The position numbers were made by a program, and so were the translations under genes. The notes under the pieces are model-generated. The model had not been told where the DNA came from. It ran no database searches and was given only the letters and a program-made list of their open reading frames with translations. A stretch of 64,000 nucleotides of DNA, taken from NCBI GenBank assembly GCA_022823085.1, contig JAJDXV010000132.1, positions 1 to 64,000 on the forward strand, written 5' to 3'. Shown one piece after another: positions 1-8,300 of the stretch (its first letter is position 1; every line of letters begins with the position of its first letter). Source of the DNA: Candidatus Poribacteria bacterium (GTDB taxonomy: Bacteria; Poribacteria; WGA-4E; WGA-3G).

Positions 1-181
1 CTGAATTTCTGCTACAATGTTAGACATGGTATCTTCTCCTTACGATACTCAACTTTATCATCTTTGCGAGAGGATACCATTTTTATGCACAAACTTCAAC
101 TCATATCTTCAAAAATACGCTGCCAAAAACTTTACACACCCTATACTAATAGATATAATGATTCGAAAAGAAGGTGACATT

Positions 182-790
182 GTGGCTTATAGAAACAAAT
201 TCTACGTTTGCTTTGATAGCGATAGTGACATTCATTATTATTGGTTGATGCGGGCATGGAAGCAAGACGATGGAACAAAATTTAATTTTTATGACGCTCA
301 TGATTTAAACACGGTGTATAACGCAAGTTTTGAGGAAACTGTCAAGCATCAACTCAGAGCACATATCCAAGATACGCGAGCCTTTGTCGTTTTAGTTGGG
401 GAAAGGACACGTTATCTCCAGTTTGTACAATGGGAGATTGAGGAAGCGTTGGCGTTAGATTTGCCAATAATCTGTGTTAACTTGAACGGTTTAAGACATC
501 GTGATCTTATAAGGTGTCCCTCTATCATTGGGGACAAGCTCTCAGTTCATATCGGTTTTAACGCCCTTATTTTACAGCACGCCCTAGAAACATGGCCGGA
601 GAAACATAGTTTGCTTAGACGACAGGCAGACTCCAGTCCGTACTATTACAAGCCGGATGACTATGTTAGCTTAGGATTGGAAACATCCAATCAAGGATCG
701 CTCTTTGAAAATCCTCCTGACAGCGAAGACAGATTTTCCAAGAAAATTCCACTATGGGAGCGTCTCCCACTTTTACGGAGAATGAAGTAA
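182..790 (+). CDS. ThsB-like TIR-domain protein (Thoeris type)
   Basis: Probable Thoeris sensor: ThsB TIR-like proteins turn NAD+ into a nucleotide signal after phage infection. The open frame runs from an ATG at 17, but I place the start at the GTG at 182. It follows AAGAAGG at a good distance, and the protein then opens with MAYRNKFYVCFD, the usual opening of this family; the 55 residues upstream look non-native. About 202 aa. The beta strand FYVCFD, the FYDAHDL segment, the AFVVLVGE strand (about residues 62-70) and the WEIEEALALDLPII helix-strand match the MTH538/ThsB fold. The Glu-rich helix is where TIR NADases keep their catalytic Glu. The stop lies 9 bp before the start of a macro-domain ThsA-like gene, so the two look like one operon. 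Family call is good; activity is inferred. Confidence 0.78.
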   Translation: MAYRNKFYVCFDSDSDIHYYWLMRAWKQDDGTKFNFYDAHDLNTVYNASFEETVKHQLRAHIQDTRAFVVLVGERTRYLQFVQWEIEEALALDLPIICVNLNGLRHRDLIRCPSIIGDKLSVHIGFNALILQHALETWPEKHSLLRRQADSSPYYYKPDDYVSLGLETSNQGSLFENPPDSEDRFSKKIPLWERLPLLRRMK

Positions 791-799
791 CTTTAGCCT

Positions 800-1873
800 A
801 TGAGATGGCCTATCTATCTTTCATGGCAGCATTTAAAAAATTGCCAACCGTTCAAGGCGATAATAACAACTGCTTGTTATGTGTATAGCACCAGTTGGTT
901 AGTCATTGAGATATTATCTCATTTCTATTCTAATACCAATTCTAATTGACGATTCGTCTTAAAAGTGCCACCATTTTTGAGTTATGCCCGGTTCGGTTAG
1001 GAAACCGAACCTACCGGGCCTGGGTGGACAGTGTATGGTTAATGCAATATAAACTTTTAGAAATGGTATAAGTTTGAGGATTGGTCACGCGGTAACTTTA
1101 GGCTGCTTATTATCATTTTTTTCTTAGGATTAATGATTGGCACTGCTCGGTACTTACGAAAATGTGCAAAAATGCTTTCAGTAACTCACAGGTTGGAAGG
1201 GCAAGATATCTCAATAGAAATCCGAGTTGGAGATATTTTTAGTATTGAGGGTGCCTTTATTATAAGTGCGAATACAGCATTTGAGACGGATATGTTAGAC
1301 GGCCCGGTTTCACCTGAAAGTTTACAAGGGCAATTCACAAACAAATATTATGACAAGGTAGAATACCTGAAGCAAGAATTAACGGATGCCTTAATTGCGG
1401 AAGAATTTGTTTTAGATGGGGAAAAACCTGAGAGGAAAGAAAGTTATGAGATTGGTAAGGTAATAAAAGTATCACCGAGAGGGCAGGTTGCTTACTTTGT
1501 TGCAATTGACGAACTCCGTGAATATGGAGGTATTGAAAGTTCCCTTGATAATGTAAGAGAGGGTTTAGGAAGTCTTTGGTATTATATTGGGGTGCAGGGG
1601 ACATTGAAGCCTCTTGTAGTACCTGTTTTAGGTACCGGACATTCTGGGATTCCTATTTCAAGGGAACAGATGATTATAGAAATCATTACATCGTTTATTG
1701 CTGCCTGTACCGAAAAGAAATTCTGTGAAAAACTGACAATTATTATTTCTGAGAATGACTACCGACAACATGACGTAAATTTGGAGGAATTAGGGACTTA
1801 TCTCCGACTTTATGCTCGTGAGGTCCATCGGAAAGCCCATGATCTCATTGCTCCAATTGATGAACCAATTTAA
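800..1873 (+). pseudogene. ThsA-like membrane/macro-domain effector, split by a small insertion
   Basis: The intact 3' part (open from 1061, first ATG 1133) encodes a hydrophobic helix, LLIIIFFLGLMIG, followed by a macro-like domain. Its segments GDIFSIEGAFIISANTAF and SPESLQGQFTNKYYD are typical of ThsA of type II Thoeris (DUF6430-like). The frame has no ATG, GTG or TTG between the stop at 1058-1060 and 1133, and the helix is already under way there. An ORF from ATG 800 to TGA 947 supplies a plausible missing N-terminus: a first membrane helix around AIITTACYVYSTSWLVIEIL, in the same reading frame. Between them lies a MITE-like element (931-1071). The ancestral protein would have had two membrane helices followed by the macro domain. 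A shortened product from ATG 1133 would lack most of the membrane anchor. Could still be expressed as a soluble macro protein, but loss of function is likelier. Confidence 0.72.
931..1071. mobile_element. MITE-like element 1 inside the thsA-like gene
   Basis: Imperfect terminal inverted repeats: TAATACCAATTCTAA (931-945) against the complement of TTAGAAATGGTATAA (1057-1071), 13 of 15 matching. The middle holds a palindrome, GGTTCGGTT-AGGA-AACCGAACC, with CCGG on both sides. No coding capacity. Exact ends are uncertain by a few bases; a TA target duplication is possible but not clean. It interrupts a reading frame that is open on both sides. Confidence 0.7.
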
Positions 1874-1934
1874 GAAAGCGCTGTTATCCAAATCGCAGAT
1901 TTTTTAGTTATTATCGGCTATGTTAGCACAAAAA

Positions 1935-2246
1935 TTAAGACGGGCCACGCCGTTGCTTCTTTTTCCATTCCCTCGCCCCTTCTCGTGTTGTACGGTTCCC
2001 AACTTGTTGAACATGGACATCTTTACCATAGTTCCGCTGGTGTTCCTTTTCACGACGGTCCAAGTCGTTTGTGATTCCACTACGGATAACTTTGTTACCG
2101 CGCTTCAGATGATATTTATAGGTGTCCCGTTTAGGCTCTATAGGGACCCCTCTCGCCTCAAGAACTTCTCTTACTGCCCGCTTGACTTTTGATCTTGGAA
2201 TCTGTCCTCGTTTGGGTGGGTATTTGACAATTCTTTGTCCTGCCAT
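1935..2246 (-). CDS. GIY-YIG-like small protein
   Basis: 103 aa, basic. The N-terminal third (QRIVKYPPKRGQIPRSKVKRAVREVLEARG) is Arg/Lys rich. The C-terminal part, YKYHLKRGNKVIRSGITNDLDRREKEHQ, resembles the core of GIY-YIG nuclease-like domains, where SGITNDLDRREKEH stands for the conserved YVGxTxDLxxRxxEH segment. The first GIY motif is not canonical, so nuclease activity is doubtful. Seen often as a stand-alone small protein in bacteria, function unknown. A short gap with a weak AGGAGG-like sequence precedes the start. It sits between the Thoeris-like pair and a broken TIR-like gene. Confidence 0.6.
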   Translation of the reverse strand: MAGQRIVKYPPKRGQIPRSKVKRAVREVLEARGVPIEPKRDTYKYHLKRGNKVIRSGITNDLDRREKEHQRNYGKDVHVQQVGNRTTREGAREWKKKQRRGPS

Positions 2247-2269
2247 TCTAATTACCTCCTGAAAATATG

Positions 2270-3084
2270 TTAGGGTTCGCTACGAGGCTGAAGACTCAGC
2301 CACTCCGCAATGGCGAAAGTATAATCATTGAATGCATTGAAGAATTTGAAATCTTCAATTTCTAACTGCAATTTTTGAGCCAGTTGGGGTAAATCATTCA
2401 GAAAATCTTGATAATGTCTCCAAATAATGCCGCCTCCTGGAATTTTCTGGCGTTCCGATGAGGTACGAAGCCAATCCCGAACTACTCTTACTACTTCTTC
2501 AGGGTTGTTGTTATGCATCGAAATGTCTTGACCTGCAATATCGGAAATAAATTTTTGATACCGATATTCTTCTTTGTCCATTACAAGACACTTTTTTCTT
2601 TTTTGGTCTTCTACACCAAATCTTTTTGCTCCGAGAAAAATTCCTAACTCCAAGGGCATATTAAACCGAGGAAGACGCGAAACCTCATCTAATTCCGTCC
2701 GAGATATATCATGGATTCCGTAGCGACAATCCTCAATAATATTAGACATTATAACAGTTTAATTGAGGTTTTCCTTATGAGTGGCGAAAACTGTGTTCTA
2801 TCCACTGTCGTTTTGCTGTCACTGCTTATATCCTGCGTTTGAATTTTGCGGTAGCCTCTAAAGCCCACAATCTAACAGATTGTGGTACAAATTCTTAAAT
2901 CACTATAATGTCTATTATAGATTTTGTCAATCCGAACTTGGCTTGCATCACCTTCTTCAAGTGCACAGCGGGCAACAAAACCACAATCATGTACGGCAAA
3001 TACTATAGCATCAAACAACGGTTTATAAGCTGAGTCAAATGGGCAATTGATAAAAACATTGTCGCTATAATCGGTTGACTTCAT
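2270..3084 (-). pseudogene. TIR-like nucleotide-binding protein gene, split by a MITE
   Basis: The 5' part (3084 down to about 2915) encodes DNVFINCPFDSAYKPLFDAI...SQVRIDKIYN. The 3' part (from about 2742 down to 2270) encodes NIIEDCRYGIHDISRTELD...RFNMPLELGIFLGAKRFG...KFISDIAGQDI. Together they make one conserved protein with a TIR-like/STALD-like nucleotide-binding fold of about 214 aa, known as a hypothetical in many genomes. Removing 2743-2912 with one copy of the flanking TA rejoins the frames exactly, giving RIDKIYN-N-IIEDCRYG. This is direct sequence evidence that a 168-bp element broke an intact gene. With the element present the upstream fragment ends after a few foreign codons and the downstream fragment starts at an accidental ATG (2749). 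Confidence 0.85.
2743..2914. mobile_element. MITE 2 with TA target duplication
   Basis: The element spans 2745-2912 and is flanked by TA on both sides (2743-2744, 2913-2914). Terminal inverted repeats start with GACATTATA; after that they diverge (left ACAGTTTAATT, right complement GTGATTTAAGAA). Near the right end it carries the palindrome CACAATCTAACAGATTGTG followed by GTACAAA, a core also present in element 3. TA duplication and short repeats point to a Tc1/mariner or IS630-type mobiliser acting in trans. No coding capacity. Confidence 0.82.
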
Positions 3085-3203
3085 GAATGTCTACTCGGTT
3101 TTACCTACATGGAAGTTTTTTGAAAACAATTTTAACTTTTTCTGCTTAGAAGTGTACCATAAATTCTATAAAATGTCTATGTAAAGTTGCATCGGTGCTA
3201 AAT

Positions 3204-3232
3204 TTGACAAAAAAAGCAATGCGTGTTATAGT
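3204..3232 (+). promoter_or_regulatory. Sigma-70-like promoter of the gamma-glutamyltransferase gene
   Basis: TTGACA at 3204-3209, 17-bp spacer, TATAGT at 3227-3232. The start codon lies 29 bp further on, after GGAGAAAG. Confidence 0.75.
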
Positions 3233-3261
3233 GGTATTAGTCTGAAGATAGGAGAAAGTGA

Positions 3262-4872
3262 ATGTTTGATGGGTACGCCCCAAACCGATTTGGACCGGGT
3301 CGTTCTGCTGTGATGTGCCAACACGGTGCAGTTGCAACGAGTCAGCCACTTGCAGCACAGGCGGGATTACAAGTTCTACGCGACGGTGGAAATGCGATTG
3401 ATGCAGCGGTCGCGACTGCTGCTGTCCTCAACGTCGTCGAACCGATGTCAACCGGTATCGGTGGCGATGCTTTCATGCTGGTTTATCAGCCTAAAGATGG
3501 GAGCATCCGCGGCTTAAATGCAAGCGGTAGGGCACCTTACGCTGCAGAACTGGAATTCTTTACCAAGCAGGGATTGACCCGTATTCCGGCTTTTGGGAGT
3601 ATGTACCCGGTTACGGTGCCTGGCACAATTGATGGATGGGCAACGCTCCTTGATGCATGCGGTACGATGCCGTTGGCAGAGGTGCTACAACCTGCGATGG
3701 ATTATGCTGAGAACGGATTTCCGGTCAGTCCGCAAATTAGTCTCTCTTGGCAAGGTAGTGCGGCGATGTTGGCACAGCATCCCGATTCAGCACAGAATTA
3801 TTTGATGAACGGTAAGGCACCTGTACCGGGTGAAATCTTTCGTCAACCGAATCTCGCTCGGACGTTTCGACTGATTGTGGAAGGTGGACGCGATGCCTTT
3901 TATCGAGGTGAGATTGCGGATAAGATTGTCCAGTTCTCCGATGAGAATGGCGGGTTGTTCACACGACAAGACTTCGCGGATCACAAATCTGATTGGGTAG
4001 AACCGATTTCTACGAATTACCGCGGTTATGATGTCTACGAGATTCCGCCGAATGGACAAGGGATCGCTGCGTTGCTTGCGCTGAATATCGTTGAGGGATT
4101 TGGTCTCGGTGCGATGGGACATAACAGTTCCGAACATCTGCATTACGCGGTTGAGGCGATGAAATTGGGGTTCGCAGACCTCTATAAGTATGTGACAGAC
4201 CCGACTTTTGTAGATGTACCGGTAGCTGGACTGCTCGCTGACGATTATACAAAAAGCCAGCGGTCACGTATTTCAGCAGAACGTGCACACGTCGGACCGA
4301 GTGCCGGTGTTCCTTCAATGGGCAGTGATACGGTCTACCTCTGTGTCGTTGATAGTGAGCGGAATGTTGTCTCTTTCATTAACAGCCTCTTTGCCGGTTT
4401 CGGTTCAGGTATAACGGCTGGTGATACCGGTATTATGTTGCAGAACCGGGGTGCCGGTTTTTCGCTTGACCCGATGCATGCGAATTGCATTGCGCCCCAT
4501 AAACGGACCCTGCACACGATTATCCCGGGCATGATTGTCCAAGATGGTGTGCCGTTGGTCGCCTTCGGTGTCATGGGTGGACAGATGCAAACACAGGGGC
4601 ATTTGCAGTTTGTGTGCAATCTGGTTGATTTCAATATGGATGTTCAGAGTGCCTTAGATGCGCCGCGGTTCCGAGTGTTGGACGATTCACAGGTTATGTT
4701 AGAAGCGGGTATTCCGATGAATGTGCAAGCCGCGTTGGCACAGCGGGGACATCGTATCGTATCGGGGAACACCTTTTTTGGTGGCGGACAAGCGATTTTT
4801 ATTCATCCGTCTTTCGACACACTGATCGCCGGTTCGGATCCGAGGCGTGACGGATGTGCAGTCGGATATTGA
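3262..4872 (+). CDS. ggt: Gamma-glutamyltransferase (GGT) family protein
   Basis: 536 aa, the usual length. Ntn-hydrolase that cleaves or transfers gamma-glutamyl groups from glutathione and related compounds. Family signatures: DGGNAIDAAVATAAVLNVVEP and MSTGIGGDAFMLVY near the N-terminus, and the autoprocessing site MGSDT-VYLCVVD with the nucleophile Thr at about residue 357. The C-terminal part holds FGVMGGQMQTQGHLQ and AGSDPRRDGCAVGY, as in the cytosolic YwrD-like branch. No signal peptide, so it probably acts in the cytoplasm. The start follows GGAGA. It is transcribed from its own promoter and no gene follows closely. Family call is firm; the natural substrate is not known. Confidence 0.93.
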   Translation: MFDGYAPNRFGPGRSAVMCQHGAVATSQPLAAQAGLQVLRDGGNAIDAAVATAAVLNVVEPMSTGIGGDAFMLVYQPKDGSIRGLNASGRAPYAAELEFFTKQGLTRIPAFGSMYPVTVPGTIDGWATLLDACGTMPLAEVLQPAMDYAENGFPVSPQISLSWQGSAAMLAQHPDSAQNYLMNGKAPVPGEIFRQPNLARTFRLIVEGGRDAFYRGEIADKIVQFSDENGGLFTRQDFADHKSDWVEPISTNYRGYDVYEIPPNGQGIAALLALNIVEGFGLGAMGHNSSEHLHYAVEAMKLGFADLYKYVTDPTFVDVPVAGLLADDYTKSQRSRISAERAHVGPSAGVPSMGSDTVYLCVVDSERNVVSFINSLFAGFGSGITAGDTGIMLQNRGAGFSLDPMHANCIAPHKRTLHTIIPGMIVQDGVPLVAFGVMGGQMQTQGHLQFVCNLVDFNMDVQSALDAPRFRVLDDSQVMLEAGIPMNVQAALAQRGHRIVSGNTFFGGGQAIFIHPSFDTLIAGSDPRRDGCAVGY

Positions 4873-4974
4873 TCGTGTAGCTGCCTGACTCAATTTGCTC
4901 AGAGGGTCGATATGTTTTCAGTTAAATAAGGAGATACCTAAGGCGGAGTAGACCTAAGTGACAAGTGAAATGAT

Positions 4975-5003
4975 TTGACTTTTCGCTTAAATTAGGATAT
5001 AAT
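4975..5003 (+). promoter_or_regulatory. Near-consensus promoter upstream of glutamate synthase
   Basis: TTGACT at 4975-4980, 17-bp spacer, perfect TATAAT at 4998-5003. Transcription would begin near 5010, about 360 bp before the gltB start. Confidence 0.7.
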
Positions 5004-5368
5004 ATTAAGACGAATAAACGGCTTTGACTCAAAAAAATGGAGATCAAACCTAATGATGTAAACCCGCCAAATTGTTCGCGGATCGTCGTCGGTACGATTG
5101 CGGATCTTTGTTGATTCCAGAGGTTCTCTCTTGCCTACGGGCGCGCTATGTTCGGCAGGATACGAATGGACAGCGTCCGATTTGATCTGTCCACCAGATT
5201 TATCCAATCGCGAAGTGGTGTCCATTCTCCGATTTGTTTGTATCTTAGATAGAGGAACGTCAAGTTATGGTACGCGAGTCCTGCAATGAAATGGCGAAAT
5301 GTAAAAGTCCACTCAACAAAGCCACAATATAAGAAATATGGAAGAATGTATGGAGAGTTAGCTTACAA
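5004..5368 (+). other. Long leader between promoter and gltB
   Basis: About 360 bases with no convincing gene. It contains a short ORF (ATG 5039 to TGA 5116, 25 codons) and an overlapping 63-codon frame (5098-5289). Neither has a good ribosome site or recognisable family. If the promoter at 4975 drives gltB this is an untranslated leader, possibly regulatory; I did not recognise a glnA-type or other known riboswitch. The stretch 4873-4974 upstream holds nothing I can name. Confidence 0.35.
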
Positions 5369-8300
5369 ATGTACAACGATGTAAATGAGAAGGATGCCTG
5401 TGGCGTCGGTTTTGTTGCGAACCGCTGTGGAAGTCGGAGCCACGAGATTATCAAGATGGCGACACAAGCGGTCACGAATTTAACGCACCGAGGCGCAGTG
5501 GCGGCTGACGCAAAAACAGGTGACGGGGCAGGCATCTTAACACAGATTCCAGAAAAATTATTTAAAAAGGTACTTGAGAAACTCGGAGTCCGCTTAGATT
5601 CAATGAATGACGTGGGAGTCGGGATGATTTTCCTGCCACGGCATAATAAGGATGCACAGGCACAGGGACGCGCGCGCATTGAAAAGGCTTTACAGGCGTA
5701 CGGCATTCCGCTCCTCGGATGGCGATCGGTTCCGGTGGACCTTTCCGCGCTTGGAGACAAGGCGTTGGAAACGCTACCAGAAATCGAACAAGTATTGATA
5801 GGGCGGCCGGAACAACTCAGCGACGACGCTTTTGAACAACGTCTATACCTGATATGCAAAGAGTTGGAACATCGGATCACCGCTGCAGGACTTGATGAGT
5901 TCCATATCGCCTCGTTTTCGCATCGAACGATTGTTTATAAAGGACTGTTAGTCGCACCGCAACTCACACAATTTTACCTCGACTTAAAAGACCCTGACTT
6001 TGCGGCAGCACTCGCTGTTTTCCACCAACGTTACAGCACAAACACCTCTTCTACATGGATGCTTGCGCAACCCTTTCATACGCTCGCACACAACGGTGAA
6101 ATCAACACCTTAATGGGCAACCGGAATTGGATGCGGGCGCGAGAGTCTGATTTGCAATCCCCACTCTGGGATGAAGACCTTCAAAAACTCGCACCGATTA
6201 TCAATCCACACGGTAGTGATTCCATGAGTTTGGATAACGTGCTGGAATTGCTAACGCATTCTGGACGCGATATCCTACACGCTATGATGTGTTTGATTCC
6301 AGAGGCTTACGAACAGATTTCGGATATGCCGGATGTACTCAAAGCTTGTTACGAGTATCTCTCATGTGTCGGCGAACCTTGGGACGGACCGGCGGCGGTT
6401 GCGTTTACAGATGGTGTTGTCGTTGGTGCCTGTCTGGATAGAAACGGTTTAAGACCGGCACGTTATAAGGTAACTGAGGACGGCATCGTTGTGATGGGTT
6501 CTGAAGTCGGTATTATTGAACTTGACGACAATCGCGTCGTGGAAAAGGGGCGTTTGGGACCGGGGCAAATGATTGCTGTCGATACAGCGCAAGGGAAACT
6601 ACTGAAAGATTCGGAAATTAAGCACGGTGTTGCCGAGCGGAAACCTTATGCCGAATGGGTACAGAAAGGTATTGTAACACTACCGAGCAAAAAAGACGAT
6701 GCCGCGCCTACAACAGAGACTGTTCCTGAGCAGCTTCCGATATATCAGAAAGCCTTCGGTTATATGACTGAGGATGTTGAACGGTTTATCAAACCGATGG
6801 TAACGGAAGCGAAAGAAGCGGTCGGTTCGATGGGTGATGATACGCCACCAGCAGTTATTTCTCGCAACCCGCATCTGCTTTACAGTTACTTCAAGCAACG
6901 TTTTGCACAGGTAACGAATCCGCCTATTGACTCAATCCGAGAACGGTTGGTGATGTCGCTGACAACTTACTTAGGGCGGCGACATAGCCTACTTACGGAA
7001 ACTGAAGCACACGCTCGACTCATCCGGATACCATCACCGATCTTGACGAATGCAGATTTACAGGCGTTACGGGAGCTCAATAACCCTGATTTTCAGGTAG
7101 CGACGCTTTCTGTCTGTTTCCGAGTATTTTCTGGGACAGAATGCTTAGAGACTGCTTTGGAAGCGTTGTGTCAACGGGCTTCAGAAGCGGTTGATGCAGG
7201 AACGACACTGCTTGTGTTAAGTGATAAGGATGTCGATCGTGATTCCGCACCGATTCCGATGGCACTTGCTGTTGGTGCTGTCCATCACCATCTCATCCGG
7301 GAAGGGAAACGGATGCGGGTGAGTCTCATCGCTGAAACCGGAGACGCAAGGGAAGAACACCATTTTGCCGTCTTAATCGGTTATGGCGCAGCGGCGGTCA
7401 ATCCGTATCTCGCTTTCTCGACGATTGTTCATCTCACTGAGGAAGGCGAACTTGAAGAATTTACAGCAGCGCAAGCGATTGAGACCTACAAAGCGACTGT
7501 CGAAAAAGGGCTTCTGAAGATTATGGCGAAGATGGGGATATCGACGGTCTCAAGCTATCGCGGTGCGCAAATTTTTGAGGCGCTCGGCATCAATGCAACG
7601 GTTATTGATAAATGTTTCACGGGGACAACCTCACGCTTAAGCGGCATCGGGTTTGCTGAGATCGCTGCAGAGACACTCCATTTCCACGCAAAAGCGTTTT
7701 CAGAGAGCGGAGACGACGCTTCACTTGAAGAGGCAGGCTATTTCCGATTCCGTCGGAACGGCGAGTTCCATGCGTTTAACCCGACAGTATTTAAATCGCT
7801 CCATAAGTTCGTCAAGGCGGGTGAATCCGAAGATTATGAAAAATATGTTGACGCTATTGAGGAAGGTGAACCTGCAAGTCTGCGTGATCTACTCGAATTC
7901 AGACCGAGTACACCGATCCTGATTGAGGAAGTAGAACCAGCGGAGGCCATTGTTCGGCGGTTTACAACCGGTAGCATGTCTTTTGGTGCGTTGAGCCGTG
8001 AAACACACGAGACCTTAGCCATCGCGATGAACCGGATCGGCGCGAAATCGGGGAGTGGAGAAGGTGGAGAGAGTTCGACGCGTTTCAAACGGCAGCCTAA
8101 CGGCGACCTCGCTTCAAGTGCTATCAAACAGGTGGCATCTGGACGTTTCGGTGTGACACCGACGTATCTGATTTCGGCGAAGGAATTGGAAATTAAGATG
8201 GCGCAAGGCTCTAAACCGGGCGAGGGTGGACAGATTCCGGGGCACAAAGTGACCGCTGAAATCGCCTCTATCCGACACTCTGTGCCAGGTGTTCCGCTGA

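What the first reader, a model, noticed from the sequence alone, without database searches (positions are those of the whole stretch)
182..1873. Type II Thoeris-like pair with the ThsA-type effector broken by a small insertion
A ThsB-like TIR gene is followed 9 bp later by the N-terminal part of a membrane/macro-domain ThsA-like protein. The reading frame runs from ATG 800 through a first membrane helix and stops at TGA 947 inside an element with inverted ends (931-1071). It is open again from 1061 with a second helix and the macro domain. Both parts are in the same frame. The locus seems to have been a working defence system that was switched off by one insertion, perhaps to escape self-toxicity.
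Basis: partly seen in the sequence, partly recalled or inferred. Interest (0 to 1): 0.75.

Follow-up and report, generated by a model that had tools for sequence, protein, structure and literature searches.

The report
Phage-defence gene broken by mini-transposon
In a bacterium of the Poribacteria group, a two-gene anti-phage defence system of a known type has had its membrane-effector gene cut in two by a small non-coding transposable element; this is an ordinary, probably recent, gene loss.

Summary
Bases 182-790 encode a full-length ThsB TIR protein; 800-946 and 1061-1873 encode the two halves of one TM-macro ThsA (PF20016): a type II Thoeris pair, in a genome of Candidatus Poribacteria kinship. 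The two closest relatives have an uninterrupted ThsA, 65-66% identical; the pieces align with residues 1-43 and 47-312 of L023. The insert is a MITE-like element of 136 bp (933-1068) plus a 2-bp target duplication. Of 20 copies examined in this genome 16 are complete, and all 16 show matching 2-bp flanks; two are identical to the thsA copy. A transposon in G029 with the same ends carries a DDE_3 transposase, so this is probably a non-autonomous IS630-type element. Stops lie in all three forward frames, so full-length ThsA is not expected; the membrane part is cut off, while the macro domain can still fold. No sign of decay: probably recent. PF20016 is rare here: 1 of 38 genomes of the genus, 5 of 58 of the family. 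Escape from self-toxicity is not shown; chance insertion into a dispensable gene suffices. Ordinary, low interest.

The parts
131..159 (+). sigma-70-like promoter match upstream of thsB (TTTACA, 17 nt, TATAAT; 11 of 12)
   Evidence: consensus scan only; 9 promoter-like sites found in 1-2000 against a mean of 5.4 (sd 2.6) in shuffles
182..790 (+). thsB, TIR signalling protein, 202 aa, GTG start, intact
   Evidence: PF08937 1.1e-18; PDLC00429 4e-62; solved chain 8v6t 2.1e-21
800..949 (+). upstream piece of thsA: residues 1 to about 43 with the first membrane helix; last codons and the TGA stop come from the element
   Evidence: 70% identity over 43 columns to L023 and L022 N-termini; frame
931..932 (.). 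left copy of the 2-bp target duplication (TA)
   Evidence: 16 of 16 complete copies examined in the genome have matching flanking dinucleotides
933..1068 (+). MITE-like element, probably a non-autonomous IS630-type element, 136 bp, imperfect inverted ends ATACCAATTCTAATTG / ATACCATTTCTAAAAG (the right end reaches 1069 in the symmetric register)
   Evidence: copies in own genome; end pattern at 59 sites against 1 for the reversed control; ends shared with the DDE_3 transposon L113
990..1015 (.). palindromic core inside the element, also dispersed alone in the genome (REP-like)
   Evidence: short matches at query positions 74-111
1069..1070 (.). right copy of the 2-bp target duplication (TA)
1071..1873 (+). 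downstream piece of thsA: second membrane helix and macro domain
   Evidence: PF20016 2e-40 for 1061-1870; 65% identity to L023 residues 47-312
1133..1873 (+). longest ATG-started product possible downstream: macro domain without a complete membrane helix (246 aa)
   Evidence: best model pLDDT 81.7, pTM 0.81; best PDB fold match EcThsA 8v6q 1.8e-13

Best explanation
A type II (TM-macro) Thoeris operon, thsB then thsA, was put out of action by transposition of a 136-bp non-autonomous element (MITE), probably of IS630 type, into a target dinucleotide in thsA, between the two membrane helices. Shown: ThsB is intact; thsA is in two pieces; the insert belongs to a repeated family with target duplications; intact relatives exist. 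Inferred: in its working form ThsB would sense infection and make a nucleotide signal (His-ADPR or similar) that makes ThsA oligomerise in the membrane. With the insert, translation stops inside the element, helix 1 is made as a stub, and any macro-domain product from ATG 1133 lacks the membrane part, so the killing step is lost. The insertion is probably recent and a chance event tolerated because the system is accessory.
For: Family hits for ThsB and ThsA-macro. Uninterrupted ThsA of 333 open codons in G043 and G044, 66% and 65% identical; the pieces align consecutively to L023 residues 1-43 and 47-312. Element: of 20 copies examined 16 are complete at both ends and 16 of those 16 have matching 2-bp flanks; the thsA copy differs by 0 bases from two other copies and by 1 from three more, of 14 compared. 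Related sequence in all 38 genomes of the genus searched, near full length (130 or more of 166 query bases) in at least 22 by my count of a capped list. Same ends, 1,145 bp apart, bracket a DDE_3/HTH transposase in G029. Stops in all three forward frames of the insert. Window ThsA has not changed faster than its intact relatives: 13-23 one-sided changes against 19-25, over 250 common columns and three outgroups; dN 0.24-0.25 against dS 1.2-1.7. Patchy distribution: PF20016 in 1 of 38 genus genomes and 5 of 58 family genomes, 0 of 14 controls.
Against: No strain-level empty site was available (one genome per species), so the insertion is dated only by copy identity and lack of decay. dS is near saturation. 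The genome is an assembly of 181 contigs with 92% completeness, and an uninterrupted allele in other cells cannot be excluded. No expression or phage data. Pocket residues described for EcThsA are only partly kept, so the signal molecule is uncertain; intact relatives differ too. The IS630 link rests on the shared ends of one element in another genome; the rest of the mini-element does not resemble it, and the duplicated dinucleotide is not always TA.
Confidence: 0.9

Rival explanations
1. Adaptive switch-off: the insertion was selected because ThsA was costly or self-toxic in this bacterium.
For: Of 13 complete copies with both flanks held, the thsA one is the only one that interrupts a likely gene; TM-macro effectors are proposed to disrupt membranes (PMC11204291, sections read).
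Against: One event only; a neighbouring gene of unknown function is also split by another insert; related elements are common in the genus; a chance hit on an accessory gene explains the same pattern.
Confidence: 0.1
2. Retained partial function: the macro-only product binds the ThsB signal and acts as a soluble sink, and intact ThsB is kept for that.
For: The 246-aa piece is predicted to fold as a macro domain close to solved ThsA domains; ThsB has no frameshift or stop and few private changes, 3 of 55 columns.
Against: The insertion looks too recent for intactness to mean selection; expression from ATG 1133 is untested; the five relatives with a long ThsA frame (G040, G043, G044, G051, G060) are all unsplit.
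Confidence: 0.05
3. Reversible switch: precise excision of the element turns the gene on again in some cells.
For: The insert plus duplication is 138 bp, a multiple of three; the element family is young and two copies are identical to the one in thsA.
Against: No close full-length relative of the L113 transposase was found in the genome: three hits over 49-81 residues, the longest frame (296 codons, L119) being only 31% identical. The multiple of three follows from the family's length (15 of 16 complete copies have the 136-bp core). No empty alleles could be looked for.
Confidence: 0.03
4. Assembly artefact: two unrelated contigs were joined at a repeat.
For: The element is repeated, and three other complete copies lie at contig ends.
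Against: The two flanks encode consecutive parts of one protein with 70% and 65% identity to the same relative, and the flanking dinucleotides match.
Confidence: 0.02

Closest known systems
Type II Thoeris (ThsB TIR plus TM-macro ThsA), e.g. the E. coli and Bacillus amyloliquefaciens Y2 systems (PMC11204291)
   Same: thsB beside thsA, TIR family and macro family, helix-bearing N-terminus, ThsB C-terminal tail, best solved ThsB match in the 8v6 series
   Different: thsA is interrupted; about 20% identity of the macro domain to solved ThsA chains in the fold search; several pocket residues differ
Poribacterial Thoeris pairs in G043 (L022/L057) and G044 (L023/L058)
   Same: Same operon order (thsB is cut by the contig start in G043), ThsA 65-66% identical
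   Different: Uninterrupted thsA, other genus, other neighbours (a peptidase-like gene downstream; that name is recalled)
IS630-derived bacterial MITEs
   Same: Short, non-coding, inverted ends shared with a DDE_3 transposon, 2-bp duplication, many copies, mostly outside genes
   Different: Duplicated dinucleotide is TN rather than strictly TA (the TA rule is recalled); carries a REP-like palindrome

Membership tests
Type II Thoeris | ThsB-family TIR protein encoded next to ThsA | tested here: met
   PF08937 and PDLC00429, 9 bases from the thsA start
Type II Thoeris | ThsA with macro domain | tested here: met
   PF20016 2e-40; the first 8 fold matches are chains of 8v6q, 8v6r, 8v6s and 8r66
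Type II Thoeris | N-terminal membrane helices joined to the macro domain in one chain | tested here: not met
   Helix 1 is cut off by stops in the element; present in one chain in relatives. A broken member, not a working one
Type II Thoeris | Catalytic glutamate and nearby active-site tyrosine of the TM-macro ThsB subfamily | tested here: inconclusive
   A glutamate aligned with 8v6t (QWE) and a Tyr at residue 8 are present in the window protein, but the residue numbers of the published site were not seen, so that these are the right ones is inference; L023 and L025 lack that Tyr
Type II Thoeris | ThsB C-terminal tail described for the subfamily | tested here: met
   Alignment to 8v6t runs to its last residue with the tyrosine-rich tail; PYYY....Y..LG is invariant in 6 of 6 aligned Poribacterial proteins
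Type II Thoeris | His-ADPR or related signal, and phage protection | not testable with these tools
   needs biochemistry and infection assays
IS630-type MITE | Inverted ends shared with an autonomous IS630-type transposon | tested here: met
   L113 ends 1,145 bp apart around a DDE_3/HTH protein; outside the ends the two do not align well. That DDE_3 with such ends means IS630 is recalled
IS630-type MITE | Short target duplication | tested here: met
   2 bp, 16 of 16 complete copies; TA in 11, TT in 4, TG in 1
IS630-type MITE | Target duplication is always TA (recalled rule) | tested here: not met
   5 of 16 complete copies have TT or TG; so IS630 type is called probable
IS630-type MITE | No coding capacity, multiple copies | tested here: met
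   stops in all forward frames (reverse frames not tested); at least 44 matches of any length in own genome (40 of 118 candidates scored)

The most novel reading that the evidence does not exclude
The element is a regulatory split of the operon: intact ThsB and a soluble macro-only ThsA piece form a non-lethal arrangement that mops up the TIR signal, and rare excision restores the lethal form.
Probability: 0.04. Interest if true: 0.65.

Novelty: new member of a known kind. Interest (0 to 1): 0.2.

Why it matters
It is a clean example of how an abortive-infection operon is lost: one tiny non-autonomous transposon separates the membrane part from the sensor part of the effector while the signal-making enzyme stays intact. 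It also warns annotators that this locus still gives strong ThsB and ThsA profile hits although the effector is broken. Beyond that it is ordinary genome decay.

Tried and rejected
Rejected: that the first fragment is unrelated to ThsA. Rejected: that two-piece ThsA is the normal form in this group. Not found: a second, intact ThsA elsewhere in the genome (one match only). Looked for an autonomous parent element in the own genome by end pattern: no pair 0.5-3 kb apart among the 59 sites listed, and three hits over 49-81 residues with the L113 transposase, one of them in a 296-codon frame (L119) that looks like another transposase of the same superfamily but is only 31% identical. A close parent was found only in G029 (L113). 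A second candidate in G018 (L114) holds an unrelated-looking 487-codon frame and a third in G029 (L115) was only printed; neither was pursued. DUF6737 match of the first fragment (E 0.012, under the curated cut-off) taken as chance. NCBIfam gave no name for ThsB, ThsA or the neighbour family; PADLOC and Pfam none for the neighbour family.

Literature: a search for Poribacteria with Thoeris found 0 papers. Searches on Thoeris with macro and His-ADPR, on Poribacteria with MITE terms, on Thoeris with insertion or pseudogene terms, on defence with inactivation terms, on Poribacteria with transposase, and on IS630 MITEs listed nothing whose title or abstract start speaks of a MITE-broken Thoeris locus; only the top rows of each list (8 to 20) were seen. 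Read: PMC11204291 (abstract, sections 7, 9, 11, 12 and passages), and passages only of PMC12847820, PMC10969869 and PMC5099237.

The count of copies in genes used a threshold (40 open codons on both sides, same strand, flanks of at most 1.5 kb) set after seeing the data, and can miss an insert near a gene's end. L017 passed it but lies between two longer frames on inspection; only L006, L009, L015 and L017 were inspected by frame listing. Three copies at contig ends (L010-L012) and four incomplete ones (L016, L018-L020) were left out of that count. A first relative comparison used different columns for different pairs; it was repeated on 250 common columns with the same result.

Full report
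What was checked. The window begins at base 1 of contig 13 of a 5.2-Mb, 181-contig genome, 92% complete. Contigs of the same lengths as those of the related genomes G043, G044, G060, G040 and G051 are titled Candidatus Poribacteria, so the genome is placed in that phylum by kinship; its own record is unnamed. The frames named in the finding are present at the stated places.

ThsB. The 202-aa product of 182-790 matches the Pfam ThsB TIR family (1.1e-18) and a PADLOC ThsB profile over its full length (4e-62). Its best solved relative is 8v6t (2.1e-21), which by its accession series belongs to the structures of PMC11204291 (EcThsA is 8v6q and 8v6r, PcThsA 8v6s; that 8v6t is EcThsB2 is my inference). 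That paper (abstract and sections 7, 9, 11, 12 read) describes TM-macro Thoeris: a ThsB can make adenine dinucleotides, and ThsA macro domains oligomerise on binding, which is proposed to cluster the membrane helices. PMC12847820 (passages) uses the name type II for it and names His-ADPR as the signal.

ThsA in two pieces. The downstream frame gives PF20016 at 2e-40 and PADLOC ThsA from profile position 57 on, so the N-terminus is lacking there. Of 193 genomes searched with the downstream protein, 7 had a match, the window's own included. Five others have a long unsplit frame (322 to 334 codons). The seventh, G031 of the same genus, matches over 74 residues only, in a 113-codon frame with a weak PADLOC ThsA hit (6e-4) and no PF20016 match; it may be another ThsA remnant and was not followed further. 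The two closest, G043 and G044, have an unbroken 333-codon frame with 66% and 65% identity, preceded by ThsB (cut by the contig start in G043). The window's upstream piece is 70% identical to their first 43 residues, and the downstream piece aligns with residues 47-312 of L023.

The insert. The stretch 915-1080 has at least 44 matches in the own genome, many of them short (40 of 118 first-look candidates were scored). Of the 20 taken as loci, 16 are complete at both ends: 15 with a 136-base core and one with 167. In 16 of 16 the two bases before and after the core are the same dinucleotide (TA 11, TT 4, TG 1); three of the 16 lie at contig ends, where these bases are the last ones held. Because T is constant, an equivalent reading is a 137-base element with a 1-base duplication. 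The thsA copy is identical to two of 14 other copies compared and one base away from three more. In the genus, 38 of 38 genomes have a match, but the best E-values run from 4e-82 to 8e-6 and the weakest may be the palindrome alone; near full-length matches (130 or more of 166 query bases) are listed for 22 genomes, own included, in a capped list. The end pattern occurs 59 times in the own genome with up to one mismatch, against one for the reversed control. In G029 the same ends, 1,145 bases apart, enclose a 365-aa protein with DDE_3 (1.1e-21) and helix-turn-helix matches; apart from the ends the mini-element does not resemble it. DDE_3 with such ends points to IS630-type transposons, whose duplication is usually TA (both recalled); the TT and TG cases here depart from that. 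In the own genome that transposase has three hits over 49-81 residues, the longest in a 296-codon frame at 31% identity, so a close source of transposase was not found. The element folds as a strong hairpin (-44.5 kcal/mol, z -4.2).

Consequence. Stops lie in all three forward frames of the insert. The upstream piece can only make a 49-aa stub. The downstream frame has no ATG, GTG or TTG before 1133; from there the product starts near the end of helix 2 and has no 19-residue window over 1.6 by Kyte-Doolittle in its first 110 residues. That product is predicted to fold (best model pLDDT 81.7, pTM 0.81; the five models range from 66.0 to 81.7), and its best matches in the PDB are the solved ThsA macro domains (8 of the first 8 rows). 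Of ten EcThsA residues named in the paper that I placed on the alignment (numbering offset of 37, my inference, consistent at D83, N96, D100, N114, S217, H259 and K262; other named residues such as S175 were not placed), four are identical (D83, N96, L113, G218), three are conservative (D100 E, S217 T, T220 S) and three differ (N114 Q, H259 S, K262 D). The intact Poribacterial relatives have their own differences, so these do not mark decay.

Age and constraint. On 250 columns common to six proteins, window ThsA is as close to the three outgroup relatives as the intact ThsA of G043 and G044 are or closer (47, 45, 44% against 45-47, 43-44, 41%), and one-sided changes are 13-23 in the window against 19-25 in them. 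dN is 0.24-0.25 against dS 1.2-1.7, near saturation. Ten private changes in the window row at 67 columns invariant in the others (one is the artificial first residue) compare with 1 to 23 in the other rows. With some element copies still identical, the insertion is probably recent, and the lack of decay in ThsB or the macro piece says nothing about selection since.

Why here. PF20016 was found in 5 of 58 genomes of the family and in 1 of 38 of the genus, this one (0 of 14 control genomes). The block 1931-7262 is collinear with G036 (86-94% identity), but nothing of 1-1930 matches the 7 kb of G036 compared, and G036 has no PF20016 match. The pair is thus an accessory locus. Next to it, a minus-strand gene of unknown function (3084 to 2270) is split by another insert (about 2745-2912) that is absent in G036; relatives of its longer piece were found in 44 of 97 genomes, own included. 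Of 13 complete mini-element copies with both flanks held, only the thsA one interrupts a likely gene by a simple open-frame rule. This fits a neutral hit on a dispensable gene; selection for loss is possible but untested.

Verdict. A broken member of a known system, broken by a member of a known kind of element.

Noticed in passing
window 2270-3084 (minus strand), insert about 2745-2912: A second gene next to the Thoeris pair, of a family of unknown function found in 44 of 97 genomes searched, own included, is also split by an insert with inverted ends (2739-2762 / 2895-2918); G036 has the unbroken gene beside the same gamma-glutamyltransferase gene.
   Followed up: partly
window 990-1015, 2865-2885, 28324-28344: Two kinds of short palindromes, one inside each insert, are also dispersed on their own through the genome, like REP sequences.
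   Followed up: partly
L113 (G029:C219:3600-5050): Transposon with the same ends as the mini-element and a 365-aa DDE_3 transposase.
   Followed up: yes
L027 1405-1743 (G031:C65): A 113-codon frame in the same genus resembles only the C-terminal part of ThsA (39% over 74 residues; PADLOC 6e-4); perhaps another remnant of a lost ThsA.
   Followed up: partly
L119 880-1767 (G000:C174): A 296-codon frame in the own genome distantly related (31%) to the L113 transposase; a possible but unproven helper.
   Followed up: no
L114 (G018:C1:2344700-2346650): Similar ends about 1.7 kb apart around a 487-codon frame that does not look like a transposase; cargo or coincidence.
   Followed up: no
G018:C1:1583207-1583643: Four left ends of the element family repeated every 90 bases before one right end, suggesting tandem growth of the element.
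   Followed up: no
window about 1874-1931: Collinearity with G036 stops just after thsA, so the Thoeris pair sits at a variable boundary.
   Followed up: partly
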